Assembly: GCA_951799405.1 (NCBI GenBank)
Contig: OX637350.1
Location: 10,649,852 to 10,713,851, forward strand
Direction of reading: 5' to 3'
DNA from: Agapetus fuscipes
Lineage: Eukaryota; Arthropoda; Insecta; Trichoptera; Glossosomatidae
DNA length: 64,000 bases
The position numbers were made by a program, and so were the translations under genes. Below are positions 7,057 through 61,550 of the stretch, piece after piece (position 1 is the first letter of the stretch; each line of letters starts with the position of its first letter). The notes under the pieces were generated by a model, which was given only the letters and a program-made list of their open reading frames with translations, had not been told where the DNA came from and searched no databases.

Positions 7057-7390
7057 ACGGTCGATAGACAAATCGGTAGAGTGCTTGCATTTCATGCCGT
7101 GAGCTCGGGTTCGAATCCCACCGAGGTTGTCAGAAATGATTTCCCGTTTCGTTGTTTATTTCTAACCCAAAATAAATACCAGCAAGGTTTACTCAACCTT
7201 TACAAAAAATGAGTAGCACTACCCTCGGGACCTGGGAAACCCCACTTCAACTGAAGTGGTTTGCGTAAGACTGGTCCTTGCCCTTGCCACATGCCCTTGG
7301 TTACCCTTGCCACATGCGACCCTTCTGGGGAAAACGCGGAAAGAAGTTACACTATATCTGTAGCTTTGAAACGTTAGCGTTTGCTTGTTT
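7057..7390 (+). mobile_element. SINE-1, near full length
   Basis: The tRNA-like head (CGATAGACAAATCGGTAGAG, GGGTTCGAATCCC) carries recognisable A-box and B-box positions of an internal Pol III promoter. The body has TGTCAGAAATGATTTCCCG, a CCCTCGGGACCTGGG hairpin, CTTCAACTGAAGTGG, and the end AGTTACACTATATCTGTAGC. A duplicated CCCTTGCCACATG stretch sits near 7275-7320. Confidence 0.85.
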
Positions 7391-7925
7391 TTTCTGAACA
7401 TTGTAATGTCAAGAACAGTCAATAGGCCATTCTGTAACCAGTACCTCGTAGTATAAAACTTGAACGTAGCCGTCTCATTTACCAAAAAAATGTATGAATA
7501 CCAAAACAGCGCTTCTAGAGAGCGTTTAAGTTTTCATCCGCTTTTGGTAAAACGCAATGGTTGAGTTTAATCTTAAAGTTGTGTCCTCGGGGTACAGAGT
7601 AAAGCTTTAATTAAACTTTTTCAAGATTAAACAAGAAAAAAACAACGAAGCACCGACTCGCTACTTTTTGTTTAAGAAAAGTTTATGCAGTATTCTAATG
7701 GATTCAAACCACTTGAGAGCTGGATACGAGAGATAAGTTAGACAGTAGCTTAAAGTTAAACAATGTAAAGTAAATTACCGTTTAAAGTTAACTATTTGTT
7801 CATGCTAATCATCCTGCAAATTGTTGCGATAAGCACATCATTTATTAAATTAATGCAAAATGTGAATCAACCGATAATGCAAAAGATTTTTTTGGTTTTC
7901 CTGATTTTTTTTTATGATGATAGAC
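7391..7925. other. Unassigned; family-D repeat at 7495-7600 (minus)
   Basis: The reverse strand of 7495-7600 matches the family-D core (CTCAACCATTGCGTTTTACC). No gene is seen. Confidence 0.4.
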
Positions 7926-8340: not shown

Positions 8341-9190
8341 AGTGAATCAACACTTATTATTCATTAATAATTTGTTAATTTTTAAGATTTAATTGATAAC
8401 ATTTTGAAGTGAAAATAAGACAGTGTTTGATTTGAATCTTAAAAATTAAAAAAAATATTATTAATCAATATGAATTTTCACAGTGTTAATACACAAACAA
8501 TGCAAAATATACTTATTATTCAATTTAACCTTTAAGGTGGCGATTCTATAAATTCGACTTGAGCAGTATTTATTTTGTATTTCCAAATCAAATATATTAT
8601 GTACTCGTACATCAAAGTTCAAAATCATCCTCACGGTTCGTATTATTAAGTATATCCTAACACATTGAAAGATTTAATATCTAGAAGATGTTTATTTTCG
8701 CTTAGGTGATATTTATTTCACAAAAATTACCTACTTTCTTGTCTAAAGTGTAAGTAACGGCGGCATTGTGTTCAATAAACCGTGAAGGCTGGATAAACCG
8801 TTATTGATGTGCCGCCTGCATCTCCAGGGACATCTTAGTTACCCGGTAATGCCGGCATTGCTCGCTCACTCTCCTGTAGATAATAAAGCAAGCAACGAGA
8901 CGGGCTTGGGATTGTTTATGCTCTTGCTAATTAACTGTAAGCTGCTTATACAAGTTCGAAGACGAGTGTACACAGCTTTTTGTTCTACTTACATACATAC
9001 TGTAACAAATGTGTGATTTTAATTTAAAAAACTGTTTTTATAACATAGTTTAATTTTTACATTTTTTTAGTTTACAATGCCTAAGCGATATCGGACTTTA
9101 TCCGTCCATCTTGAGAGGCTAACTGAGGTTAAAAACAAATTGGGTCAAAATTCAAGGTAGGAAAGAGAAAGTGGATGGGGTTTTTCGGGC
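8341..9190. other. Unassigned; small A/T-rich inverted repeat
   Basis: Two A/T-rich arms (about 8364-8391 and 8433-8466, TTTTTAAGATT against AATCTTAAAAA) could form a hairpin. The open frame at 8804-9016 shows no domain. Nothing else is recognised. Confidence 0.4.
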
Positions 9191-9194
9191 AGGT

Positions 9195-9435
9195 ACTGTT
9201 ATAAATTTTTAAGGAATGTGTGATTGTGTATTTTTACTTGTGTGAGTGTGTCTCTAGATATAGGTGATTGGATAATTGTACTAGTGTTTGTTCAAAGGTT
9301 CTGGCGAAGTCTCACATTCTCCAGTACGCCATGTTTCAAGAACCGTCCTTATCTCATACTACAAAAGGGGCTAAAACCGTCTGTGACGCGGACTTCTTAG
9401 TACCAGAGCCGCTGAGCAAGACAGTAGGTACGAAA
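9195..9435 (+). mobile_element. LTR fragment, family of 45058-45403
   Basis: It shares AATGTGTGATTGTGTATTTT, CTCTAGATATAGGTG, TCCAGTACGCCATGTTTC, AAGAACCGTCCTTA and GAGCAAGACAG with the solo LTR at 45058-45403. The ends are not clear and there is no internal region. Confidence 0.55.
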
Positions 9436-9873: not shown

Positions 9874-9998
9874 GTCAACGACGTTAGCCATGTTGAAAGC
9901 ACCGGTTCCCATAGATCACCGAAGTTAAGCAACATTGGGCGTGGTCAGCGTTTGGATGGGTAACCGCTCAGGTACTCGTACACCGCGTGTCGTTGGCA
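9874..9998 (+). pseudogene. 5S rRNA-derived sequence (pseudogene or SINE head)
   Basis: The sequence follows the arthropod 5S rRNA pattern almost end to end: GTCAACGACGTTAGCC at the start, TGTTGAAAGCACCGGTTC, GATCACCGAAGTTAAGCAAC (box A region), TTGGATGGGTAACCGC (box C region) and CACCGCGTGTCGTTGGCA at the end. Compared with a normal 5S there is a deletion in the first helix region and a few extra bases before CACCGCG (GGTACTCGTA). A SINE-2 tRNA-like head begins 8 bp downstream. It is therefore either a 5S pseudogene next to a SINE or a 5S-tRNA composite SINE. Confidence 0.75.
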
Positions 9999-23790: not shown

Positions 23791-24112
23791 ACTAATGAAT
23801 ACCTGTTTCTGGCCAGGCAAAAATAGGTTGGTGAATAATTGTATTCTTCTTTACAAATTTATTTAAAAACGCATCCTATTCTTCTATTTGTATTAGATCT
23901 AATATCGGTTTTTGTGGAACTCTTTCTGATGCAAAAGACTAGCTGTTCTACCATATTTTGAGTGGGCATCCTGGTAGACGCTGGCCGTCCGGTATTTCCT
24001 GTGTCACGGTTCGTGTTAACCTACTTTCGCTCATGTTGTCTACATGGTTCTGTCTCCTCTTCCTACTTCTTAATTAGACTGTATCTATCATATTATTGTT
24101 TCCATGTTGCAG
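23791..24112 (+). other. Intron 3' part upstream of the Elk exon
   Basis: The sequence is non-repetitive with a pyrimidine-rich run (CTGTCTCCTCTTCCTACTTC) about 55 bp before the exon, a TTGTTTCCATGTTGCAG acceptor and possible branch points. The in-frame stretch upstream of the AG is not conserved with the channel. Confidence 0.6.
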
Positions 24113-24346
24113 ACAGCAACTTCGTGCTGGGCAACGCGCAGGTGCCCAAGGTGTACCCCATCGTGTACTGCTCGGATGGCTTCTGCGAGCTGACGGGCTT
24201 CACGCGCGCGCAGATCATGCAGAAGGGCTGCGCGTGCAAGTTCCTGTACGGGGAGGACACCATGCCGGACCACAAGGCGCAGATCGACAGCTCGCTGGAC
24301 AACAAGCAAGAGCTCAAACTGGAGGTCATCTTCTACAAAAAGAGCG
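24113..24346 (+). CDS. Elk: Elk-type voltage-gated K+ channel, PAS-domain exon
   Basis: This single internal exon encodes 78 residues of the N-terminal PAS domain of an ether-a-go-go family channel. It starts SNFVLGNAQVPKVYPIVYCS, continues DGFCELTGFTRAQIMQKGCA, and ends QELKLEVIFYKKSG. VYPIVYC.DGFC and QIMQKGCACKFLYG are hallmarks of the Elk subgroup rather than Eag or Erg. The acceptor TGTTGCAG precedes 24113 and the donor GTGAGT begins at 24347. The exon starts at the second base of a codon and ends after the first base of a glycine codon. In the channel this cytoplasmic domain modulates gating. The short first exon and the following PAS, membrane and cyclic-nucleotide-homology exons are not in the window, so flanking introns exceed 24 and 39 kb unless the scaffold is broken. 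GC content far exceeds the surroundings. Confidence 0.93.
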
Positions 24347-24414
24347 GTGAGTTCATTCTCATTCTAAGATCTGATCTTGACCAATATACTGTTACAAACG
24401 TATGGGTACGTACG

Positions 24415-24735
24415 TCAGCCTTAACACGCAAGTGTGTGTCAAACAATCTAGTTCTAGTATGATCTATTATAGGAGTATTCGCACGTGAGTCGCAGCGTGC
24501 TACTGTGTGTCGAACAGTCTGGCTCTAGTATGATCCATTATAGGAGTATTCGTACGTGAGTCACAGCGTGCTACTGTTTGTCGAACAATCTGGCTCTAGT
24601 ATGATCCATTATAGGAGTATTCGTACGTGAATCTAAGCGTGCTAGTGTGTGTCGAACAATCTGGCTCTAGTATGATCCATTATAGGAGTATTCGTACGTG
24701 AGCGTAAGCAGGCTGGTCGGTGTGCGTGTGGAACA
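24415..24735. repeat. 71 bp tandem repeat, about 4 copies
   Basis: TCTAGTATGAT recurs at 24453, 24524, 24595 and 24666, exactly 71 bp apart. Each unit contains CATTATAGGAGTATTCGTAC and GTGTGTCGAACAATCTGG. Units 2-4 are nearly identical. The array begins about 70 bp after the Elk exon donor site. Confidence 0.9.
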
Positions 24736-29964: not shown

Positions 29965-30446
29965 GAAAATCGACCACCCATAGTTTAAAAAATGGTTCAC
30001 TTTGAAGATTTCAGCTGTGTTTCAGGGAAGATTGGCAAGAGTTGCAGGGCTTATATTAATTTGAGATTGGGTTTTTATGTTGTAAGTCAACATGCATTAT
30101 GTGTAAGCGTGAACTTATAAATGTCTGCTTGTGGGAATGCATTTAATATGAATCTCGATTGGTATGTATCTTTGCAACTTAGATTATAGAACTTAACAAA
30201 ATAATTTCCTTGACTTATAGGTTAGTATGTGGCTGACCACCCATACTGTAAGAATGGTGTACCATGAAAATTTTATCTCTGTTTGAGGAAAAGTCGGCAA
30301 GAGTTGCAGGGCTTATGTTCATTTGAGATTAGTTTTTTATTTTATAAGTCCACATGGGGCATTTGTAAGCGCGAACTTATACCTGTCTGCTAGTGGGAAT
30401 GCATTTAATATGAATCTCAAATGGTATGTATCTTGCAACTTAGATT
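29965..30446 (+). repeat. RepA tandem units 1-2, left of the LINE
   Basis: Unit 1 (about 29965-30186) begins CGACCACCCATAGTTTAAAA. Unit 2 begins GAACTTAACAAAATAATTTC and ends CAACTTAGATTA at the LINE junction. They belong to the same array as 38223-39880. Confidence 0.85.
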
Positions 30447-30986
30447 ATTTATTTTTTTTATTTTATTTATTTATTCTTAAAGACACCAACAGAACAAAGG
30501 AGTAGCACATACACAAAAAAAAAACACAATAATACAAACACATAAGTATCTCCAATGCTCCAATAATAGGTGCCTATCGCATAATCTTATTTTAACAATA
30601 ATTAATTAGCGGGAGTAGGTATTATGAGTTGGAATAGGTAAATACACTATGCCGGGCCCGGGGCGCTGAGCTTCAACGCACATATACAGCATACAATGCT
30701 GTACAGCGATAACCAACGCACACACGCACAATGCATCAGATTCATAAAACGTCACCGGCAATGTCTATAAAATGCTTGCGTTGAAATTTCAGGCATTTAA
30801 TAAATTAAAATAAGAATACTGAACACCATGTCAGCCATGCAAACAGAAATAAAAACATACATGAAAATTGTTTACAAATATAAACAAAAATAGAATAGAA
30901 TAGAATATTCAAACCATGATTTAGGGTTGTTTAAAGATTAGCTTAGGTATGATTCATTAACAGGATAAAATATAAATTTAAAATTA
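30447..30986 (-). other. LINE 3' UTR and tail
   Basis: It lies between the ORF2 stop and the A/T-rich tail, with no ORF. It includes a GCCGGGCCCGGGGC-type GC-rich spot near 30653. Confidence 0.7.
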
Positions 30987-32841
30987 TCAATCTCGACAAA
31001 AATTACCCCTTATCGCAGTTTTAAGTGATTCAATTGAACTGGAAAATATATCAATATCGGGAAGAACTCTCTCTAAAGCATTGTAGGACCTCATCATTCG
31101 ATCAATAGGTCGAAAATGACCAACGTTGGAATTGTATTTCCTGATTCTAAACGTTTCACTATTTCTTAATCGTACATTTCCATGAAAATGCAAACTTTCA
31201 ATATCTGTTGTGTGCAAATCTCCACGTATGAGCTTACAAAGATATACAAGTTCAGCAATATTGCGCCTATCATACAACGTATCCATCTTAAAGTGACGAA
31301 GTCTCTCAGGGTAAGCTTTTCCCCTTCCTAAACCTGCTCTGTAAGAGAGTACCCTCGTGAAACACTTTTGAACACGTTCAATGTTATCTTTATGAACGGC
31401 ATAGTGGGGTGACCATATAAAGGACTGGTACTCGAGTATGCTACGGACTAATGAGTAATACAATGCTATCAGGCTACTTGGGTTTTTGAAGGGTTTCGTA
31501 ATTCTGAAGATGAAACCCAGAGTCCTATATGATTTCTGTGTAATGATTTCGTAATGTTTCCTAAACGTAAGTTCTGCATCGAGTGTTATGCCTAAGTCCT
31601 TGACCGCGGTGACCCTGTCAATGCACACGCTGTTGATTTTATAGTCATATTTTGTAACCTTTCTATTACGGGTGAACGTGATAGAATAACACTTACTTGT
31701 ATTCAACAGCATGTTGTTAGTAGAGCACCAAGCAGTCAAAGCACTCAAGTCAGTCTGCAATTTATGGCAGTCGCCCATGTCTTTTACCTGAATGAATAAT
31801 TTTAGGTCGTCAGCGTACATCAGATAACTGCAAGCGAGATTCGAGCCAAGATCATTCATAAATATTAAAAACAATAGGGGACCCAAGTGCGAACCCTGTG
31901 GCACACCAGAGGTGACCACCATTGGACCAGAGTCGTGTCCTCCTACAGAGACATACTGCACCCTGTCACTAAGATAAGAGCTGAACCAGTTTAGCAAACC
32001 ACGCCCAATGCCCATCCCATGCAATTTCCTCAGAAGAATACTGTGATCAACCCGGTCAAACGCCTTGCTGAGATCGGTATAGATAGCGTCCACCTGGACC
32101 CTGGAATCAAGACTTTCGCTCAGGTAGTTCACGAACTCCATCAGATTGGTATTCGTGGATTTTTTGGAGACGAAACCATGCTGGTTTTTGTCTAGCAGCG
32201 GACCGACGTGGTGATAGACGTACGCGTACACGACCTTCTCGAAAATTTTCGAGAAGACAGGCAATAGACTGATGGGCCTATAGTTTTTTACGTCCGCTCT
32301 GTTGCCGGATTTAAAAATAGGAACAATTCTCGAGACCTTCCACAAAACCGGAAAGACACCGCTGTCAAGCGATCGCTGAAAAATAGTAAACAAAGGATCA
32401 ATCAATTCGTCAGCGCATTCCTTTACAAATAAATTCGGTATATCGTCACTTCCAATGCCCTTGTTAATATCTAAACTATTGATAATTTTTAATATTTCGT
32501 ACTTACTTAGAGACAAGCGACAAAGAGAAAGGTGAGATACAAAAGAGGAGTTTTCTGAGTGTTCGTCAATTATAGAGGAGTCGACAAAGACAGAAGAAAA
32601 GAATTCTGCAAATAAATTGCTGACACCCTCACCACCATTAGCTGTGACTCCTTCGTAACTCACCTCCCGTGGTATGGAACTTGAGTGTTTGTGTGAGTTT
32701 ACATAACTCCAAAAGGGTTTAGCGGAGTGCTTGAGCGAGGCCTCGATGGAGGCTACATATGATTTGTGACAATTTTTAATTGACTTCTTCACCCTATTTC
32801 GCAAGACAGCAAAGGCCTTCTTATCCGTTTCGTTACCATAT
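30987..32841 (-). pseudogene. LINE ORF2, reverse transcriptase half
   Basis: This open frame (605 codons from its first ATG at 32804, and open further to the LTR at 32841) is the downstream part of ORF2. Counting from that ATG, RT motifs include YTDLSKAFDRVDH (242-254, first catalytic Asp), SGVPQGSHLGPLLFLIFMND (299-318) and YLMYADDLKLF (327-337, YADD). A thumb/C-terminal region to residue 605 follows, with LGITLDAELTFRKHYE. The RT copies LINE RNA at the nick made by the endonuclease. The first ~50 residues continue the endonuclease-RT linker. It is separated from its endonuclease half by the LTR element, so the joint protein cannot be made, although each half is open. Confidence 0.9.
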
Positions 32842-33296
32842 TGTTACGTTTTTCCTTTGGGTTCTTTTAATTAAAACACAAGTTTAACACAAGTTAGCCA
32901 TACAGTTTATTTACACAGACTTTCTTACAATAGATTTATTTTAACAGACTTATTCTAACAGATTTATTTTAACACACTTATTTATTTCGTACAGATTACA
33001 TTTATTTTACACCTTATTGGTCGCCCTGGCAACTAGATACTCCTCTGTGTGAGTGCTTCGAAGACTGACTCGCTTCAGCCCATTGTCGCCCTTCTTATAG
33101 CGGAACCTAGGGGCCATTCCAGCCTGCCCTAGAAACTTCCACTACCACAGTTGTATAGACGATTCTGGACATATTTATTTCATGAAGAGTCCATTTCCTA
33201 CCTACATACACACCTTACAATTACAATCGTCTGGGCCAGAACATTCTCTCAAAACACACGTACACCAATAAACATCTACCAGTGTATTTCGTTACA
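32842..33296 (-). repeat. LTR (3' LTR on the minus strand)
   Basis: 455 bp, TG...CA type. It contains a TATA-like TATAAG on the minus strand near 33095-33100 followed by an initiator-like TCAGTC. Several AATAAA signals and a three-fold ~17 bp sub-repeat (TCTGTTAAAATAAA-like) lie near 32925-32985. Confidence 0.92.
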
Positions 33297-33310
33297 TTAT
33301 CCCCCCCTTA
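33297..33310 (-). promoter_or_regulatory. Polypurine tract
   Basis: On the minus strand TAAGGGGGGGATAA lies directly against the 3' LTR. Such a tract primes plus-strand DNA synthesis in LTR elements. Confidence 0.8.
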
Positions 33311-33312
33311 GG

Positions 33313-33331
33313 CTGTTCCGCCCCGGAACAG
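33313..33331 (-). repeat. Hairpin next to the polypurine tract
   Basis: CTGTTCCG and CGGAACAG form a perfect 8 bp stem around a 3-base loop, between the ORF stop and the polypurine tract. It may be a conserved element of the parental retroelement 3' end. Confidence 0.7.
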
Positions 33332-33339
33332 TCTTTACT

Positions 33340-34998
33340 TTAAGAAGGTACGGGCAGTTTGACCCACAGTTGCATCCAGTGGTCAGGAAAAATGACGTTC
33401 CACGGAATTTTCCCCTTAGGGTTTTGCCCGTCATTGCTGGCTGGTGTGGGGGGGGGGTGCTTTCCTCTTGGCGGCCGGCATGGGCGCCTTTCCTTGGCTG
33501 GGGGCACCGCTTTGCGTCCCCGGGCGGCCACCGCTCCTCGGCCCCGCTTGCTCGCCGGCGTCAAAGGATCAGAATCCTTGGTCGTCGGAGCCGCTCTCCT
33601 GCTCGGAAGCGAAGTTCTCACTCTCGCTCTCGTCCTCTGACTCGCTGAGTTGCTTCCTGCCGCGCCATGCTTGGGTCGTCGCTTCTGCTTGCTCTGCTTG
33701 GCTGAGCCCCTGCGGGCGGGGGCGCGGCGCCTGCGGGAGGGAGCGCCCCCCTCCCCCACTGACGGGTCAAAGTCAGAGTCCGCCTCCTGTCCGGAGCCAC
33801 TCGGGTTGTACGAGCCATCTGAATCCCCTAATTCATCCCTGCTGACTTTGGGTCCCCGCACTTTGGTTTCCGGATCTCTTTCATACTCCTCGTTAGAGTA
33901 ACCTCTCTTGACAATAGCAGCAGCGGACCTTCTGGGCCTGCCTCCCGTGGCCTCGCCGCGGTCAGTCACCGGCCTCTCCTTCATCAGCCCCCTGGCGTGC
34001 GAGGAGACCTGCTTTGGCAGCAGCAGGAAGCCCATTACCCTGCTGACCAGCTCCGTGGGCGCGCCCCTCTTGTCCAAGCCCAGCTTCTCGCACAGCGTCC
34101 GCAGCTGCTTGGGCTCCAGCTTCTGCACCTCCTCCAGCTTGGCCTTGTGCTCAGGCGTGTCCTTCTCAAACTCGTAGCCCTTGAACTTCTTTTTGTTGCG
34201 CTTGATGAGGTTCGTGCGGCACAATTGATTGTACCGGAACTTGAGGTCCTCCATCTTGAACCTGGAGATGGCCACCTCCACGTCGGGGATGTGGTCGATG
34301 GGGATGCCCCGGCCCGCGGGCACGGGCACCGGCGGCTCCACGGCCTTCTTCTTCTTGGGAGCCTCCTCCACGGCCTCCTCCGCCTTCTTCTTGGGCGCGG
34401 GCTTCTTCTTCACACTGTTGGCCTTCTTGGCCTTGCCCTTCTTGTCCTTGGCGTCCTCCTCCTTGGCGTCCGTCTCCTCCTTCGCATCCTTGTCAGCCTT
34501 CACCTCGGCCGAGTCACTCTTGCCGTTTTCAGCCGACTTGACATCATCTTTGTCATCTTTGCTGTCAGCTGCGTCCTCAGCCTTGAGCTGGCCGTTGTTT
34601 TTGGCCTTCAGGTCTCCCTTCCCCAGTTTCTGAGACGACTCATCCTCAGTTGACATATCGGCCTTTTTGTCATCCTGATTATCACTTAATTTTACACTAT
34701 CAGTGTCCTCCGACATTTTTAAGGCTAGGTTTTTAGCCCTCTCCTCCTTCCAACCAGCTAGGTCTTCCCTCAAGCTCTTGAAGTTGGCAGCCATCTTTGT
34801 TTTAAACTCTTCCACGGCTCGCTCGCGGTCCCCTCCAGACGCCATGACAAAATATGCCGGGTCTTCGCCTGCCTGTTCCAAGGCCTCTATGAGGCGTGCT
34901 TGTAAGGCTGCCTTTCCTCCTGAGGTCTCCAGGTCCCTCTCCAGAAGCTCATTCTTAAGCTCATAGGCTTTGAGGTCCTTGATGTTCACCTTAGCCAT
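33340..34998 (-). CDS. SAP-domain/DEK-like protein captured in an LTR element
   Basis: 552 residues. Residues 5-42 form a SAP motif (IKDLKAYELKNELLERDLET, then SGGKAALQARLIEAL), followed by a short helix (EEFKTKMAANFKSLREDL) that looks gag-like. From Met95 (MSEDTDSVKL) the protein is DEK-like: an acidic/lysine-rich stretch (96-225), then a DEK core at 230-329 (RGIPIDHIPDVEVAISRFK, FKGYEFEKDTPEHKAKLEE, LCEKLGLDKRGAPTELVSRV). A Ser/Arg/acidic tail follows. DEK proteins bind structured DNA and chromatin. The C-terminal DEK-C domain is absent, and the last ~30 residues (GKIPWNVIFPDHWMQLWVKL) look element-derived. There are no introns, as expected for a cDNA copy. High GC contrasts with the flanks. 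Alternative: a host DEK retrogene flanked by LTRs by chance, which the PBS, PPT and target duplication make unlikely. Confidence 0.85.
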   Translation of the reverse strand: MAKVNIKDLKAYELKNELLERDLETSGGKAALQARLIEALEQAGEDPAYFVMASGGDRERAVEEFKTKMAANFKSLREDLAGWKEERAKNLALKMSEDTDSVKLSDNQDDKKADMSTEDESSQKLGKGDLKAKNNGQLKAEDAADSKDDKDDVKSAENGKSDSAEVKADKDAKEETDAKEEDAKDKKGKAKKANSVKKKPAPKKKAEEAVEEAPKKKKAVEPPVPVPAGRGIPIDHIPDVEVAISRFKMEDLKFRYNQLCRTNLIKRNKKKFKGYEFEKDTPEHKAKLEEVQKLEPKQLRTLCEKLGLDKRGAPTELVSRVMGFLLLPKQVSSHARGLMKERPVTDRGEATGGRPRRSAAAIVKRGYSNEEYERDPETKVRGPKVSRDELGDSDGSYNPSGSGQEADSDFDPSVGEGGAPSRRRRAPARRGSAKQSKQKRRPKHGAAGSNSASQRTRARVRTSLPSRRAAPTTKDSDPLTPASKRGRGAVAARGRKAVPPAKERRPCRPPRGKHPPPTPASNDGQNPKGKIPWNVIFPDHWMQLWVKLPVPS

Positions 34999-35350
34999 TT
35001 TTTATTTTAACAAAAATTTAAATTTACTTCAAAATAATTTACTTCAAAACAAATTATTTTACAAAAAAATATATTTTTAAATTTCAAATAATGATATTAG
35101 ATAATGATTATTTACTTTGCTTCGCCAGATCGGCTAATGAGTATTTACTAACACTATCACAATATTATTAACACGTTATTTATGTACACTTCAATCAAAT
35201 TTTTAGCGGGTAACCACACGATCGTTTTTAATTCAAGTTTAACCAGTTTTATTTAAAACTTTTTTTTTTTTATTCATCAGTTTTTATTATGTTGTCCACA
35301 TATATTTTTCAAAAGTCTCAAGCACAGTTTTTACTTGGTACTTGGTTTTA
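34999..35350 (-). other. Leader of the LTR element
   Basis: About 350 bp of A/T-rich sequence between the primer-binding-like site and the ATG, with no ORF. It could hold packaging signals. None can be identified by eye. Confidence 0.6.
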
Positions 35351-35368
35351 AACTTCACACCGACACCA
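35351..35368 (-). promoter_or_regulatory. Primer-binding-site-like sequence
   Basis: On the minus strand, one base after the 5' LTR, TGGTGTCGGTGTGAAGTT begins with TGG, which would pair with the CCA end of a tRNA. I cannot assign the tRNA. Confidence 0.65.
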
Positions 35369-35369
35369 T

Positions 35370-35824
35370 TGTTACGTTTTTCCTTTGGGTTCTTTTAATT
35401 AAAACACAAGTTTAACACAAGTTAGCCATACAGTTTATTTACACAGACTTTCTTACAATAGATTTATTTTAACAGACTTATTCTAACAGATTTATTTTAA
35501 CACACTTATTTATTTCGTACAGATTACATTTATTTTACACCTTATTGGTCGCCCTGGCAACTAGATACTCCTCTGTGTGAGTGCTTCGAAGACTGACTCG
35601 CTTCAGCCCATTGTCGCCCTTCTTATAGCGGAACCTAGGGGCCATTCCAGCCTGCCCTAGAAACTTCCACTACCACAGTTGTATAGACGATTCTGGACAT
35701 ATTTATTTCATGAAGAGTCCATTTCCTACCTACATACACACCTTACAATTACAATCGTCTGGGCCAGAACATTCTCTCAAAACACACGTACACCAATAAA
35801 CATCTACCAGTGTATTTCGTTACA
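35370..35824 (-). repeat. LTR (5' LTR on the minus strand)
   Basis: 455 bp. I found no difference from 32842-33296 in a side-by-side reading. It would supply the promoter for the DEK-like ORF. Confidence 0.92.
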
Positions 35825-36820
35825 ATATATTTTAAATCTTTTGTGAACTTTGTCTTTTTCCCTAATCATATGGATAAGGGAAGCGCTGTACCATGAAGGG
35901 TATTTGTGAGACTTAGGTCTCATTTTTGGGGTATGATGTTCAATTACTCGCCAAACTGAGTTGTAAAAAAGCTGCAGAGCATCGTTAACATCAAGATCTT
36001 CGAGGAACGACCAATCGATCTCGGAGAGTTCCATCTTACACGACGTAAAGTTGGTTTTGCGAAAATTATAACGAACACGCTCGGCATTGCAGCTCAGACC
36101 AATCGGGACAAGAGAAGGAGCAATACTCACGACCAATGGAGGGTGATAACCGTCCGCCCGCACCAATCCTACGGTCGAAGACACCTTCATTGGAGCATTG
36201 GAGAGAACAAGGTCTAATATACCAGAATTAATACTATTGTATACTGAATTGAACTGCTTGAAATCGGTCAGAGACAACATGTCCTCCAGAAGCTGAGCCT
36301 TCGCACCACTCTTAGAGGTAATATTCAGATAATCATCAGAGTAAGGTGACCAGACAATAGATGGTAAGTTATAATCTCCTAATATTATATTTGTGGTTCC
36401 TGGTGGAGAGTCAAGGCAAATCTCACTGCATTTATTTAGATGGTTGTGGAGCTGGTCGGTTTTAGCGTCTGGAGGGATATAGACAACACATATGTTAATG
36501 TCAGGGCGACCATCACTATTCCTTATTGTTAGCCATAGATCTTCCATCCCAGAGCGCCATTCACGCCTAGTTCTAACATTGAGATTCTTTTTGACCGCAA
36601 CCAGAACTCCGCCGCCCATTGATCTACTTGAAAAATCTGTATCTTCACGGTCCCGTCTAAAAACAATATATCTGTCATCGAATAATTCCTCGTTAGTTAT
36701 GTCTTTGTGTAGCCAGGTTTCAGTTAAGCAAATAATATCAAAATCTTCATTAAGAGTTTCTATATAAATTTCATTGGTTTTCGTTCTTAGTCCTCTGACG
36801 TTTTGATAAAAAATTGACAT
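35825..36820 (-). pseudogene. LINE ORF2, endonuclease half
   Basis: An APE-type endonuclease domain, open from ATG 36820 to the LTR. Recognisable residues are QNVRGL (6-11), the catalytic Glu in CLTETWL (Glu34), VYIPP (113-117), GDYNLP (148-153, with catalytic Asp and Asn), and ADGYHPPLVV (222-231), where the usual SDH triad is altered to D-x-x-H. After residue 332 the frame runs into LTR sequence and stops at 35804. The LTR element and one ATAT copy can be removed conceptually without breaking the reading frame into the RT half. ORF1 ends 63 bp upstream. Confidence 0.9.
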
Positions 36821-36883
36821 AATGAAAAAAAAAGTATGAAACAGATTTAATCTTGATTTCAGAAGACTGACCAGGATAGTGCA

Positions 36884-37825
36884 TTACAATTTGTCCAATG
36901 AGCCGTAATCCATCATTTCTATTATCGGGGATGCGTCGTTTTTCCTTGTTAATATTTTTCCGTTTTGTATCCACACATATCTTATTTGTTTTTCCTTAGC
37001 TAACATCCTGGTCCTTGCATGCAGTTGTTTGAAGTACGGTGATAGGTGTTCACCAATGTAGAAGGAGTCATTTGAATTAAAGCCAATCATTTTCAATTTC
37101 AATTTTTCTGTCTTGTTGCTCCTGTTAAATTGTTTAACTGATTGAAGGAAGTTGTCACGGTAACGGCCATTTGGGAGTTCGACAATAATGTTTCTTGGAC
37201 GATTTGTAGAGTTAGTTTGATGCTGGACTCTATGGCATGCTATGATATCATCCTTTTTGATAGGAAAACCTATTACATCGCCAGTTATTTTTAAAACTTC
37301 TAGTAAGTTTTCCCCCTTTCTTTCAGGTACCTGTTGGATTTCTATGTTCGCTCTTCTCTGCCTCTGTTCCATTAAGTTAATTCGGTGTTCCAAAGTCTTG
37401 TTTTTATCGATCAGATTCAGATTGTCAGCCCTGATTTTTTCCATTAGGCCTTCATTCCTTTTCAATACTTTGTTCATTCTGTCGTATTCATCGGATAGAA
37501 ATTGGATTGAGTTTTTGATTTCCTCAAATTGTGTGACTTTTTCTTTGATTGCCGTTAAATCCTTTGCTAGATCCATTTGAATAAACTGGGTGATTGGATC
37601 TAGTTTTTCCATAAGATATTTTTCTAATTTTGGCCACAAGTCGTCGTTTGCAGACGAATTTAGTTTGCAATCAGGGCATCTCCATTTGTTTTTGTTCATT
37701 TTCAGCATACTTTTAAAAGCTTTCTCGCCCATACCCACACAGAAGAAATGATATCCAACTAAACACCTGGCGCAGGTGATTGAGTCCTCCTCACACAGTG
37801 TGTCTTGGCATTTGATACAGTTCAT
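36884..37825 (-). CDS. LINE ORF1: PHD-type zinc finger, coiled coil, nucleic-acid-binding domain
   Basis: 313 residues. Residues 3-53 hold a Cys/His pattern fitting a PHD finger (CIKC, CARCLVGYHFFC, WRCPDC). Residues 60-160 are heptad-rich and probably form a coiled coil (EEIKNSIQFLSDEYDRMNKV). Residues 160-300 resemble the L1-type ORF1 RNA-binding and C-terminal region (RRANIEIQQVPERKGENLLE, RPRNIIVELPNGRYRDNFLQ). ORF1 proteins coat LINE RNA and form the RNP used in retrotransposition. PHD-bearing ORF1s are known in Jockey/CR1-type insect LINEs. The frame is intact. ORF2 starts 63 bp after its stop. Confidence 0.85.
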   Translation of the reverse strand: MNCIKCQDTLCEEDSITCARCLVGYHFFCVGMGEKAFKSMLKMNKNKWRCPDCKLNSSANDDLWPKLEKYLMEKLDPITQFIQMDLAKDLTAIKEKVTQFEEIKNSIQFLSDEYDRMNKVLKRNEGLMEKIRADNLNLIDKNKTLEHRINLMEQRQRRANIEIQQVPERKGENLLEVLKITGDVIGFPIKKDDIIACHRVQHQTNSTNRPRNIIVELPNGRYRDNFLQSVKQFNRSNKTEKLKLKMIGFNSNDSFYIGEHLSPYFKQLHARTRMLAKEKQIRYVWIQNGKILTRKNDASPIIEMMDYGSLDKL

Positions 37826-38222
37826 TATGATATTTACCGAATAGACGGATTTGACTGCAACACTAAGACTTGCTATGAGCGTGTGTCAACCCTGTTTCCG
37901 CTTGCTTTGTTTATACCTCGTCAGCGATTGTGAATTATTATGATTGGGTAATGTCTGCCCAATAAAAGGCGTATTGTATATTTTTTGCTAATATCGTCCT
38001 TATTGACGTGTGAGGTATTTGAGAAATATCAATGTTTTTTACAGAGTTTATGGGACACTCACCGCTGCTCTCGTGTTGCATTCAATATCACCTCCAGTTT
38101 TAGAATTAGCGTATCAGTTGCGTGTATTATTATTAATATTAGATAACTATATACAAAGATATTGTGATTTATTCAACGCAGCAAATTTAGACAACCAGCA
38201 AAAATAACTGTTTTTGTATAGA
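37826..38222 (-). other. LINE 5' untranslated region
   Basis: About 400 bp upstream of ORF1 to the RepA junction, with no ORF. It presumably carries an internal promoter. The presence of a full 5' region supports a full-length insertion. Confidence 0.65.
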
Positions 38223-39880
38223 TTAATGAACTAAACAAAATAATTTCCTTGACTAAAAGGTTAGTATGTGGCTGACCACCCATACTATAAGCAATGGTTC
38301 ACAATGCAAATTTTATCTCTGTTTGAGGAAAAGTCGGCAAGAGTTGCAGGGCTTATGTTCATTTGAGATTAGTTTTTTTTATTTTGCAAGTCCACATTGG
38401 GCATTTGTAAGCGTGAACTTGTACCTGTCTGCTTATGGGAATGCATTTTATATGAATCTCAAATGGTATGTATCTTTGCAACTTAGATTATAGAACTAAA
38501 CAAAATAATTTCCTTGACTTATAGGTTAGTATGTGGCTGACCACCCATACTGTAAGATTGTTTTACAATGAAAATTTTATCTCTGTTTGAGGAAAAGTCG
38601 GCAAGAGTTGCAGGGCTTATGTTCATTTAAGATTAGTTTTTTATTTTATAAGTCCACATGGGGCATTTGTAAGCGCGAACTTATACCTGTCTGCTTGTGG
38701 GAATGCATTTAATATGAATCTCAAATGGTATGTATCTTTGCAACTTAGATTAATGAACTAAACAAATTAATTTCCTTGACTAAAAGGTTAGTATGTGGCT
38801 GACCACCCATACTGTAAGCAATGGTTCACAATGCAAATTTTATCTCTGTTTGAGGAAAAGTCGGTTCATTTGAGATTAGTTTTTTTTATTTTGCAAGTCC
38901 ACATTGGGCATTTGTAAGCGTGAACTTGTACCTGTCTGCTTGTGGGAATGCATTTAATATGAATCTCAAATGGTATGTATCTTTGCAACTTAGATTAATG
39001 AACTAAACAAATTAATTTCCTTGACTAAAAGGTTAGTATGTGGCTGACCACCCATACTGTAAGCAATGGTTCACAATGCAAATTTTATCTCTGTTTGAGG
39101 AAAAGTCGGCAAGAGTTGCAGGGCTTATGTTCATTTGAGATTAGTTTTTTTTATTTTGCAAGTCCACATTGGGCATTTGTAAGCGTGAACTTGTACCTGT
39201 CTGCTTGTGGGAATGCATTTAATATGAATCTCAAATGGTATGTATCTTTGCAACTTAGATTATAGAACTAAACAAAATAATTTCCTTGACTAAAAGGTTA
39301 GTATGTGGCTGACCACCCATACTGTAAGCAATGGTTTACCATGCAAATTTTATCTCTGTTTGAGGAAAAGTCGGCAAAAGTTGCAGGGCTTATGTTCATT
39401 TGAGATTAGTTTTTTTATTTTGCAAGTCCACATTGGGCATTTGTAAGCGTGAACTTGTACCTGTCTGCGTGTGGGAATGCATTTAATATGAATCTTAAAT
39501 GGTATGTATCTTTGCAACTTAGATTATGTAAAGAAATACACAAAATAATTTTCTTGACTTATAGGTTGGTATGAGGCTGACCACCCATACTTTAAAAAAT
39601 GGTTTACTTTGCAAATTCACCTTTGTTTCAGGGAAGGTTGGCAAGAGTTGCAGGGCTTATGTTCATTTGGAATGGGCTGTTATGTTGTAAGTACACATGC
39701 AGCATATGTAAGCGGGAACTTATACATATCTGCTTGTGGGAATGCATTTAATATAAATCTTAAATGATATATATCTTTGCAGCTTAGATTAGATTAGATT
39801 AGAACTTATACATGTCTGCTCGTAAGAATGCATGTAATATGAATCTCAAATGTTATATATGTTTGCAACTTAGATTACAG
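38223..39880 (+). repeat. RepA tandem array, units 3-8 and a partial
   Basis: Head-to-tail units start near 38229, 38493, 38755, 39000, 39265 and 39529, with lengths of 264, 262, 245, 265 and about 264 bp. Each begins GAACTAAACAAAATAATTTC and ends CAACTTAGATTA. Units 3, 5, 6 and 7 are very similar. The unit at 38755 lacks CAAGAGTTGCAGGGCTTATG. The last full unit (39529) is more diverged and is followed by a partial end (39803-39880). With 29965-30446 this is an eight-unit array. Confidence 0.93.
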
Positions 39881-59591: not shown

Positions 59592-61550
59592 ATTCATCTA
59601 TTAACAAATATAAAAGAGATAGAGACACGGCTGTCATCTTGGAATGAAGATAATATCTAATAATAATGTGGGAGAAGTACCAAACCTATTTGCTACGTTT
59701 TTTAAAAGTGTTTTTACTACTGATAATACTGGTCAGTCCTTTGATTTCTCATCTCACATTGATTTTCAGCTCTCGAGCTTGTCATTTGAAGTGTCTGATG
59801 TTACATCAGGTATAAAATTAATGAAACCTTTAACTTGTCCTGGCCCTGATGGGGTTCCGGCATTTTTTTTAAAGAATTGTGCTTCTAGTTTGACACAACC
59901 TTTGTGCACTATTTTTAATTTATCTATATCTTCTGGATGCTTTCCACTTATCTGGAAGACATCCTACATCACTCCAATATTCAAAGGTAAGGATAGGAAG
60001 GATGTCACAAACTACAGACCTATTAACTTGCTCTCGGCTATTCCCAAACTGCTTGAAAAACTGATTTTATCGAAAATTGGATTTGTGGTCACTAGATCTT
60101 TAACTAATTGTCAACATGGCTTTTTACCCAATAGATCTACGACCACTAATCTCATGTCTTATGAGAATTTTTTGTCGGGGGCTCTTGGTAGACGTAAACA
60201 GATCGATGTTATTTACACAGATTTCGCTAAAGCTTTTGATAGAGTTTCTCACAATATCTTGCTTACGAAACTGGAAGCAATGGGAGTATCTGGTAGCTTT
60301 TTGTTGTGGATTAGGAGTTATATTATGAATCGTTCCCTGATCGTGAAAATAAATAACTCTGAGTCTGATCCTTTTACACAAACTAGTGGTGTCCCACAGG
60401 GATCTCATCTTGGTCCGCTGCTATTTTTATTATTCATTGACGATATTGTTAATGTTGTCCAGGACTGTAATGTACTTTTGTTTGCGGATGACATTAAAAT
60501 TTTTCGTGAGATCGACTCAATCAACGATTGTATTAAACTACAATCGACACTTGATAGATTAAATAACTGGTGTTCACTTAATCATCTTAATCTTAATATA
60601 TCCAAATGTCAAGTGATGCGTTTTTATAGATTAAAAAACCCATTGATTAAAGATTATGTTATTAATCATAACTTATTAAATAATGTTTTAGTCATCTCTG
60701 ACTTGGGGGTTCTGTTTGATCATAAACTCTCATTTGTCGCCCACATTAACGATATCCGCGCTAAAAGTATGAAAATGCTTGGCTTTGTTTTCCGAATTAC
60801 CAAAGATTTCCGTGATTTACAAACAATAAAAATTCTTTATACTTCACTGGTCCGTAGCGTTTTAGAATACTGTTCTACCATCTGGTCTCCTCACTTCTCG
60901 GTCCATATTGACAATATTGAAAAAGTTCATACTAAATTTTTAAAAATCGTTAATTTTAAACTAAATATTCCTATTGCTAATTTTGACCCCATCTTCCTTA
61001 ACTCCTTACTTAATTTAACTAGTTTGTCTAATAGGAGAAAAATTATTGATTTACTCACACTCTATAAAATTAAGAATGGTCTAATAGATTGCCCGATGTT
61101 GCTTGAAACTATTAATTTTTTTGTTCCGCGACAGGGATCTCGTCAGATAGTTCCTTATCGCCCTGTAGCTTCCAATACAAATGCACATTATAACAGTTGC
61201 ATAAATCGCCTTCAACGTAGTGGTAATACCTGTACACTGGACTTTGACCCACCCAACAATAACTTTGATAGGTATAGAGCTGCTCTGTTGAGGTACTTTT
61301 TGGATGAATAGTGTTTTTATTTCTGTTGCTTGTATATTTCATTTGATTTTTGATTTATATTTTTTGATTTATATTTTTTCTCTAGTTAGTAACTTTGATT
61401 TTTATTCTTATTTTTATATAGTTTTTGTTATTGTGTTTATTTGTTTCATTTTACTTTCATATACTTTACATCTTTTTGGTATTTTTATGTATTTGTGTTA
61501 TTTTTTAAACTATGTAACCATTTCATGTAAAAGGCACTAAGTGCCGTTAA

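What the first reader, a model, noticed from the sequence alone, without database searches (positions are those of the whole stretch)
32842..35824. LTR retroelement whose only long gene is a captured DEK-like chromatin protein
Seen: two 455 bp LTRs, TG...CA ends, ATAT duplication, TGG-starting primer site, polypurine tract, and a single 552-codon intronless ORF with a SAP motif and a DEK core. No RT or integrase is present. Known: DEK is a conserved host DNA- and chromatin-binding protein, and retroviruses and some plant LTR elements can transduce host cDNAs. Inference: a non-autonomous element has captured DEK and may spread or express it from its LTR. An insect LTR element carrying DEK is not one I know of.
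Basis: partly seen in the sequence, partly recalled or inferred. Interest (0 to 1): 0.88.

Follow-up and report, generated by a model that had tools for sequence, protein, structure and literature searches.

The report
Retrotransposon carrying a stolen chromatin gene
A small mobile element, apparently in a moth or butterfly, has fused the start of its own coat-protein gene to a stolen copy of the host's DEK chromatin gene and has spread to about 290 places in the genome, much as cancer-causing retroviruses carry stolen host genes.

Summary
In detail: a 2,983-bp LTR element (minus strand) with identical 455-bp LTRs, ATAT duplication, PBS, PPT and one 552-codon ORF. One correction: codons 1-94, SAP motif included, are the Gag N-terminus of a Ty3/gypsy element, not DEK; DEK follows in frame from its start codon. 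The parent is an intron-containing DEK gene on C11 of the same genome (five exon blocks 92-95% identical; acidic exons 74-82%). Four exon joints match its splice sites exactly, so a spliced mRNA was captured. The last two host exons found, with DEK_C, are missing; the tail comes from the 3' end of pol. A 30-mer across one spliced joint occurs 290 times (control 0). Of 31 elements measured, 24 have identical LTRs. Of 150 scored copies, 139 have an open frame of at least 520 aa. Autonomous Gag-Pol elements are present, and two longer elements with a gag share the LTR 30-mer. A gag breakpoint (nt 176-178) shows exchange with autonomous elements. Host-gene transduction is known (maize Bs1, retroviral oncogenes); a large, recently active animal family with a Gag-linked heterochromatin regulator is, in my searches, new. 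What Gag-DEK does is inferred.

The parts
35370..35824 (-). 5' LTR (455 bp)
   Evidence: identical to the other LTR over 455 bp
35353..35368 (-). primer-binding site TGGTGTCGGTGTGAAG; five other copies carry TGGTGTCAGGTGTGGGG, as does an autonomous element (L057)
34999..35369 (-). 5' untranslated leader (371 nt); only short stretches near its 3' end resemble the leaders of the autonomous elements read
33340..34998 (-). 552-codon Gag-DEK-tail ORF
34717..34998 (-). Gag N-terminus (codons 1-94: SAP motif and start of coiled coil); nt 7-175 (34824-34992) is 90.5-94.7% identical to 9 of 10 autonomous gag loci read
33441..34716 (-). captured DEK cDNA (ORF nt 283-1558), from the DEK start codon to the end of host exon H; exact splice joints at ORF nt 771/772, 1096/1097, 1182/1183, 1431/1432
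33297..33440 (-). 3' tail homologous to the 3' end of autonomous pol; read in the pol frame in 11 of 31 copies measured, shifted by 1 nt in this copy
33297..33309 (-). polypurine tract AAGGGGGGGATAA
32842..33296 (-). 3' LTR (455 bp)
32838..32841 (.). target-site duplication ATAT
35825..35828 (.). target-site duplication ATAT

Best explanation
This is one copy of a non-autonomous Ty3/gypsy-type LTR family. It arose when reverse transcription of an autonomous SAP-Gag-Pol element switched onto a co-packaged, spliced DEK mRNA of the host and back. The result was LTR - gag N-terminus - DEK without its last exons - pol tail - LTR. SHOWN: Gag-DEK fusion, spliced origin, parental gene, tail origin, copy number, recency of the sampled insertions, presence of autonomous relatives, 5' exchange with them. 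INFERRED: enzymes and capsids come in trans from autonomous relatives; template switching in mixed particles made both the capture and the later gag swaps; the open Gag-DEK frame is translated. My most likely function (about 0.35, inference, level with passive cargo) is that Gag-DEK is a chromatin-bound Gag variant that loosens heterochromatic silencing and so helps the family be transcribed.
For: Gag N-terminus: 44% over 96% of residues 1-95 to a SAP-bearing Gag; 90.5-94.7% DNA identity to 9 of 10 gag loci. Parent gene and splicing. Tail. Autonomous enzymes. Copies: 290 spliced joints and 1,033 LTR matches, both with control 0. LTR pairs 6.2-7.8 kb apart: 5 of 29 pairs in the first 100 of 1,033 places, two of them containing a listed gag hit. 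Recency: 24 of 31 LTR pairs identical, 3 with one mismatch, 4 not comparable; exact 4-bp duplication in 26 of 31. Exchange: the window copy matches autonomous gags up to nt 175 and old Gag-DEK copies from nt 179. Open frames: 139 of 150 scored (of 313 candidates) at least 520 aa; stops by substitution 2 counted against 8.7 expected in 38 copies. Function: Dek over-expression de-represses heterochromatic silencing in Drosophila (PMC2936522, passages); human DEK without its C-terminal domain still binds nucleosomes (PMC12263440, passages).
Against: No expression, protein or mobilisation data. The DEK core of the window copy, like 6 of the 10 copies aligned, lacks 4 residues; AlphaFold2 gives it pLDDT 60, with only the SAP half resembling DEK, against 76 (other models 57-70) and a full DEK match for L050. 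From codon 227 to 500 amino-acid changes are in excess (omega about 1.9), so DEK function is not clearly conserved. Some copies are broken: L050 and L052 by frameshift, L051 by a frameshift, an insertion and a stop, L037 in its tail. Against the anti-silencing idea: DEK compacts chromatin and stimulates PRC2 (PMC12263440) and has Su(var)-like activity (PMC10753498), so extra DEK might strengthen silencing.
Confidence: 0.9

Rival explanations
1. Passive cargo: the DEK stretch is filler of a suitable length between functional ends (packaging leader, PBS, PPT). The ORF stays open only because the copies are young or because translating the Gag start stabilises the RNA.
For: Sampled copies are very young. 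Codons 227-500 show no amino-acid constraint within the family. The 4-residue deletion weakens the predicted fold. The tail frame varies and the basic part is tandemly duplicated in L055 and L056.
Against: Stops by substitution are depleted (2 counted against 8.7, P about 0.008). Codons 1-226 show purifying selection (omega about 0.65, P about 0.02). Frames of at least 520 aa are open in 139 of 150 scored copies.
Confidence: 0.35
2. Chromatin-tether Gag: Gag-DEK enters mixed particles through the Gag N-terminus and holds the incoming complex on nucleosomes or directs integration.
For: The DEK SAP region binds nucleosomes (PMC12263440, passages). Foamy-virus Gag tethers to nucleosomes (recalled). 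The SAP half of the window core keeps a fairly confident fold (pLDDT 70-83).
Against: The fusion lacks the capsid and zinc-knuckle parts, so particle entry is unproven. No integration bias was tested beyond the 4-bp duplication.
Confidence: 0.15
3. RNA-level hostage: piRNAs against the family would also hit host DEK mRNA, which limits silencing of the element, or lets copies in piRNA clusters regulate DEK.
For: Host and element are 92-95% identical in five exon blocks. Gag-linked PxyMasc retrocopies on the Plutella W make piRNAs against the parental gene (PMC9674220, passages).
Against: No small-RNA data. It does not explain the stop deficit.
Confidence: 0.15
4. Normal DEK locus flanked by unrelated LTRs, or a duplicated DEK gene.
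For: None found beyond sequence similarity.
Against: The host DEK with introns and DEK_C lies within C11:945,900-955,899 and upstream. The window copy is intronless, inside a LINE, with an exact ATAT duplication.
Confidence: 0.01

Closest known systems
Maize Bs1 retroelement
   Same: LTR element with transduced host gene segments (PMC13317346, passages)
   Different: Plant; segments of three metabolic genes, none full-length. Here one chromatin gene, about 290 copies, a traced parental gene, and a genome that looks lepidopteran.
Acute transforming retroviruses (delta-gag-onc; recalled, no call)
   Same: N-terminal Gag fused in frame to a host cDNA, replacing gag-pol, dependent on a helper
   Different: Here an endogenous LTR retrotransposon family multiplied in the germline; cargo is DEK; the autonomous pol frame read runs nearly to the PPT, leaving no room for env after it.
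LTR-mediated retroposition in metazoans (Tan et al. 2016; not held; seen through passages of PMC5408686 and PMC9674220)
   Same: Template switching between an LTR element and a cellular mRNA
   Different: The passages seen describe retrocopies and polymorphic cases; none describes a re-mobilised family of hundreds of copies.
Pxyfem, the PxyMasc retrocopies of Plutella xylostella (PMC9674220, passages)
   Same: Lepidopteran host cDNA next to gag fragments of LTR elements
   Different: Partial cDNAs in W-linked clusters in a transposon graveyard, acting through piRNAs; the passages show no intact LTR-flanked mobile unit with an open fusion ORF.
DEK protein family
   Same: Host-derived N-terminal half with the pseudo-SAP/SAP region
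   Different: Lacks DEK_C; Gag N-terminus added; pseudo-SAP shortened by 4 residues in the window copy and its close relatives.

Membership tests
LTR retrotransposon (Ty3/gypsy type, non-autonomous) | Paired LTRs with TG...CA ends and a target-site duplication | tested here: met
LTR retrotransposon (Ty3/gypsy type, non-autonomous) | tRNA-type PBS after the 5' LTR and PPT before the 3' LTR | tested here: met
   the priming tRNA itself was not identified
LTR retrotransposon (Ty3/gypsy type, non-autonomous) | Related autonomous element with domain order protease-RT-RNase H-integrase | tested here: met
   on pieces L058 and L059 of one element; the integrase core was not read, its C-terminal domain was
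LTR retrotransposon (Ty3/gypsy type, non-autonomous) | Own RT and integrase | tested here: not met
   no such frame between the LTRs, hence non-autonomous
Host-gene transduction by an LTR element | Intronless host cDNA inside the LTRs, with the parental gene in the same genome | tested here: met
Host-gene transduction by an LTR element | Re-mobilisation of the chimera | tested here: met
   290 spliced joints; exact 4-bp duplications at 26 of 31 elements
Delta-gag-onc type fusion | In-frame Gag N-terminus | tested here: met
Delta-gag-onc type fusion | Trans-complementation by a helper | not testable with these tools
   supported only indirectly by the gag exchange and LTR sharing
DEK family | Pseudo-SAP/SAP core | tested here: inconclusive
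   by sequence E 2.2e-12; the predicted fold is confident only for the SAP half in the window copy and complete in L050
DEK family | C-terminal DEK_C domain | tested here: not met
   not among the Pfam matches of the ORF; the only genomic match of a DEK_C query is in the host gene

The most novel reading that the evidence does not exclude
Gag-DEK is an anti-silencing weapon. The element turned the host's own heterochromatin regulator, stripped of its C-terminal domain, into a Gag-linked dominant interfering protein. Repeated swapping of gag ends and fast amino-acid change in the DEK part reflect an arms race with the germline silencing machinery.
Probability: 0.25. Interest if true: 0.95.

Novelty: new variant of a known kind. 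Interest (0 to 1): 0.82.

Why it matters
It shows that an endogenous animal retrotransposon, not only an infectious retrovirus, can take a host mRNA, fuse it to Gag and turn it into a family of hundreds of copies, the sampled ones recent. The parental gene, splice joints, exchange with autonomous relatives and several subfamilies all lie in one genome, so capture, helper use and selection on a transduced gene can be studied directly. The cargo is a heterochromatin regulator, which makes a self-serving effect on silencing plausible and testable.

Tried and rejected
Normal DEK locus: rejected. Whole ORF as DEK: rejected for codons 1-94. Whole ORF as gag: rejected. Ancient capture, suggested at first by 43-47% identity to other insect DEKs: rejected, because the host's own DEK is similarly divergent from P0003 and P0007 in the core exons (49-59%) while 92-95% identical to the element in five blocks. 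A simple claim that DEK is conserved by selection: not supported, because codons 227-500 show an excess of amino-acid changes. That excess is itself approximate: parsimony on 38 copies, 30 picked from the score-ranked list and 7, recombination ignored; in the 33 young copies alone the lowest P of any segment is 0.049, and with CpG sites masked only codons 421-500 stand out (P 0.0008). One viral-contig scan found no relative. The last protein search found 3 lepidopteran DEKs and one unnamed DEK, none Gag-fused. Literature searches (and on DEK 100, 109) showed no DEK-bearing LTR element in the titles and abstract starts listed.

Most of the gag 3' half, the integrase core and the longer LTR-matching elements were not read. 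A search for the source of the older gag N-terminus did not complete.
Full report
What is there. On the minus strand of the window lies a 2,983-bp LTR element (32842-35824). Its LTRs are identical over 455 bp, with a TGG-starting PBS after the 5' LTR, a PPT before the 3' LTR and one 552-codon ORF at 33340-34998. It sits inside a LINE whose endonuclease and RT frames flank it. Joining the flanks and removing one ATAT gives 200 codons without a stop, so the insertion is clean.

The ORF is a fusion. Residues 6-41 are a SAP motif (Pfam E 2.3e-9). A search with residues 1-95 found one protein, P0001, 44% identical over 96% of the query. P0001 has a SAP domain and, just below the curated cut-offs, a PNMA-type capsid and a CCHC knuckle, so I read it as a Gag. 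The host genome holds many such Gags: of 1,672 first-look candidates 103 were scored, many with 420-450-aa open frames and five listed rows with frames above 1,800 aa. At the DNA level, ORF nt 7-175 is 90.5-94.7% identical to 9 of the 10 gag loci read. Residues 95 onward match DEK: PDB DEK chains at 227-331 (E 1.2e-11) and seven DEKs (five named lepidopterans, one unnamed, one damselfly; E down to 6e-64). The alignment starts at the DEK initiator Met. The DEK_C domain (PF08766), listed for all seven, is absent here.

The parent. A DEK_C query finds one place in the 618-Mb genome, at C11:946,574-946,732. The 10 kb around it (L062) holds a DEK gene with introns. ORF blocks match its exons at 93.6% (nt 772-1098), 94.1% (1183-1335), 95.0% (1440-1558), 92.9% (1333-1431) and 92.1% (1095-1183). 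The acidic region matches at only 82% and 74%, with indels. Four joints in the ORF coincide exactly with host splice sites: 771/772, 1096/1097, 1182/1183, 1431/1432. The 325-nt and 86-nt exons keep their length. DEK sequence ends at the 3' end of exon H. The two further exons found (7241-7453 and 9174-9326 of the reversed locus, the second with DEK_C) are missing. The first exons of the host gene lie outside the DNA read, so the 5' joint was not compared with the host 5' UTR.

The tail. The stretch from the end of DEK to the PPT aligns with the 3' end of pol in an autonomous element. In 11 of 31 copies measured the ORF reads the pol frame to the PPT (566-568 residues, ending FFLTTGC...CPYL...KTVPGRNSLRGG). 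The autonomous Pol ends in a CCCH-finger match just under its cut-off. Nineteen of 31, the window copy included, have the other tail, which differs by one base in a poly-C run; one (L037) stops earlier.

A family, not a curiosity. A 30-mer spanning the exon D/E joint (0-1 mismatches in 37 of 37 other copies read, 9 in the host gene) occurs 145 + 145 = 290 times with up to 3 mismatches; the reversed control gives 0. An LTR 30-mer with up to 2 mismatches occurs 530 + 503 = 1,033 times, control 0. In the 31 elements measured (the window copy and 30 of the 79 scored, which ranks by similarity to the window), 24 LTR pairs are identical, 3 differ at one base and 4 were not comparable; 26 of 31 have an exact 4-bp duplication. 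Three differences in 27 x 455 bp is 2.4e-4 per site. With a recalled lepidopteran rate of about 2.9e-9 per site and generation that means tens of thousands of generations on average, a rough figure for a sample biased to window-like copies. In one search, 78 of 79 scored matches had no stop inside. In the scan with a DEK-core query, 150 of 313 candidates were scored; none had a stop in the match and 139 of 150 had a stop-to-stop frame of at least 520 aa. Older copies do decay: L050 and L052 are frameshifted, L051 carries a frameshift, an insertion and a stop.

Autonomous relatives and exchange. Pieces of one autonomous element (C5:10.647-10.655 Mb) carry CCHC, aspartic protease, RT, RNase H and the integrase C-terminus. 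Its PBS begins TGGTGTCAGGTGTGGGG, as in five Gag-DEK copies (L018, L021, L022, L028, L036); its own LTR is different. Among the first 100 of the 1,033 LTR places, 29 successive same-strand pairs lie within 12 kb (one of them only 111 bp apart). Five are 6.2-7.8 kb apart, and two of these contain a gag hit, so longer elements share this LTR stretch. They could not be read. Older Gag-DEK copies (L050, L052, L054) differ from the window type in the first 58 codons (about 67-72% DNA identity where aligned) but match the window copy at 91-94.5% from nt 179 (L052, L054) or 202 (L050). The window copy matches autonomous gags up to nt 175 and, beyond nt 202, at only about 71-75% apart from one 38-nt piece at 84%. 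This is a recombination breakpoint near nt 176-178: the young subfamily has taken a gag end from an autonomous element. L053 carries yet another gag stretch, 77-83% identical to 9 of the 10 autonomous loci. Such exchange is expected if both RNAs meet in one particle (inference).

Selection. In 209 codons of DEK, 14 differences are fixed between the host and all 36 copies compared; all 14 are synonymous. Two of the 38 copies (L051, L053) lacked the complete stretch and were dropped. pS to the host is 0.14-0.16. The divergent copy L050 has 23 synonymous and 3 amino-acid differences. Within the family the picture changes. On 38 copies, codons 1-226 give omega about 0.65 (43 S, 64 N; P 0.02), while codons 227-500 give about 1.9 (27 S, 106 N; P 0.0008). 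Stops by substitution are rarer than expected: 2 counted against 8.7 (P 0.008). One of the two (L011, codon 97) is a two-change codon that in fact reads Leu; the other is in L051. In the 33 young copies 1 was counted against 3.7, not significant as counted, though that one is the L011 codon. I read this as an open frame kept for translation, with DEK itself relaxed or changing fast. These are approximate parsimony counts on a non-random sample with recombination ignored; in the young copies alone no segment falls below P 0.049.

Fold. AlphaFold2 with 9 sequences gives best pLDDT 76 (five models 57-76) for the DEK core of L050, matching DEK-nucleosome structures along its length (TM 0.83, E 7.5e-6). 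The window core, which lacks 4 residues, gives 60; only its SAP half matches (about 50 residues, E 0.01). The alignment is shallow, so this is a hint, not proof, that the amplified copies carry a damaged pseudo-SAP.

How it probably works. Template switching onto a packaged cellular mRNA is the published model for LTR-linked retrocopies (PMC5408686, passages). Spread in trans follows from the lack of RT and integrase and the presence of autonomous relatives (inference). For the protein, four ideas were weighed: anti-silencing, passive cargo, chromatin tether and RNA hostage. For the first: over-expressed Dek de-represses heterochromatic silencing in Drosophila (PMC2936522, passages), and human DEK without its C-terminal domain still binds nucleosomes (PMC12263440, passages). 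Against it: DEK compacts chromatin and stimulates PRC2 and is described as Su(var)-like (PMC10753498, passages), so the direction of an effect is open; dominant interference by a fragment is possible. I put anti-silencing and passive cargo at equal odds, 0.35 each.

Known or new. Host-gene transduction by LTR elements is known (Bs1: PMC13317346, passages; Pxyfem: PMC9674220, passages). A survey of eight lepidopteran genomes holds retrocopies to be mainly non-LTR-mediated and does not contain the word DEK (PMC11675541, passages). I found no report of an animal LTR retrotransposon family of this size carrying a host gene fused to Gag, nor any DEK-bearing element, in the listings of searches; these cover open-licence papers only. 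I therefore file it as a new variant of a known kind.

Noticed in passing
30987-32843 and 35804-37885 (-): A LINE (RT, endonuclease and an ORF1-like frame with a Baculo_FP_2nd match and a sub-cut-off PHD match) with long open frames, split by the LTR element.
   Followed up: partly
59623-61311 (+): A second LINE-type RT frame of 562 codons (RVT_1 E 2e-33).
   Followed up: no
23962-24462 (+): PAS-domain exon (PAS_9 E 1.9e-10) that looks like an EAG/erg-type potassium channel (name recalled), perhaps the host gene here.
   Followed up: no
9874-9998 (+): 5S rRNA-like sequence (Rfam 57.5 bits), possibly a 5S-derived SINE or dispersed copy.
   Followed up: no
38219-39791: Tandem repeats of about 265 bp, with a related stretch at 29972-30451.
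   Followed up: no
L059:1-1042: The autonomous Pol ends near the PPT in a CCCH-type zinc-finger match just under the cut-off; its remnant forms the tail of Gag-DEK.
   Followed up: partly
L055, L056: Tandem duplication of the basic DEK tail, extending the open frame to 684-687 aa.
   Followed up: partly
L009-L038 and window: The 4-bp duplications are mostly ATAT, GTAT or ATAC, suggesting a target preference.
   Followed up: no
G000:C26:9184606 and 9187139: Two DEK-core matches 2.53 kb apart on the same strand, perhaps two elements sharing an LTR.
   Followed up: no
window ORF nt 1333-1431: The acidic host exon (SESEDESESE...) is read in a shifted frame in Gag-DEK, giving an Arg/Ser-rich stretch, while L053 keeps the original frame.
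   Followed up: partly
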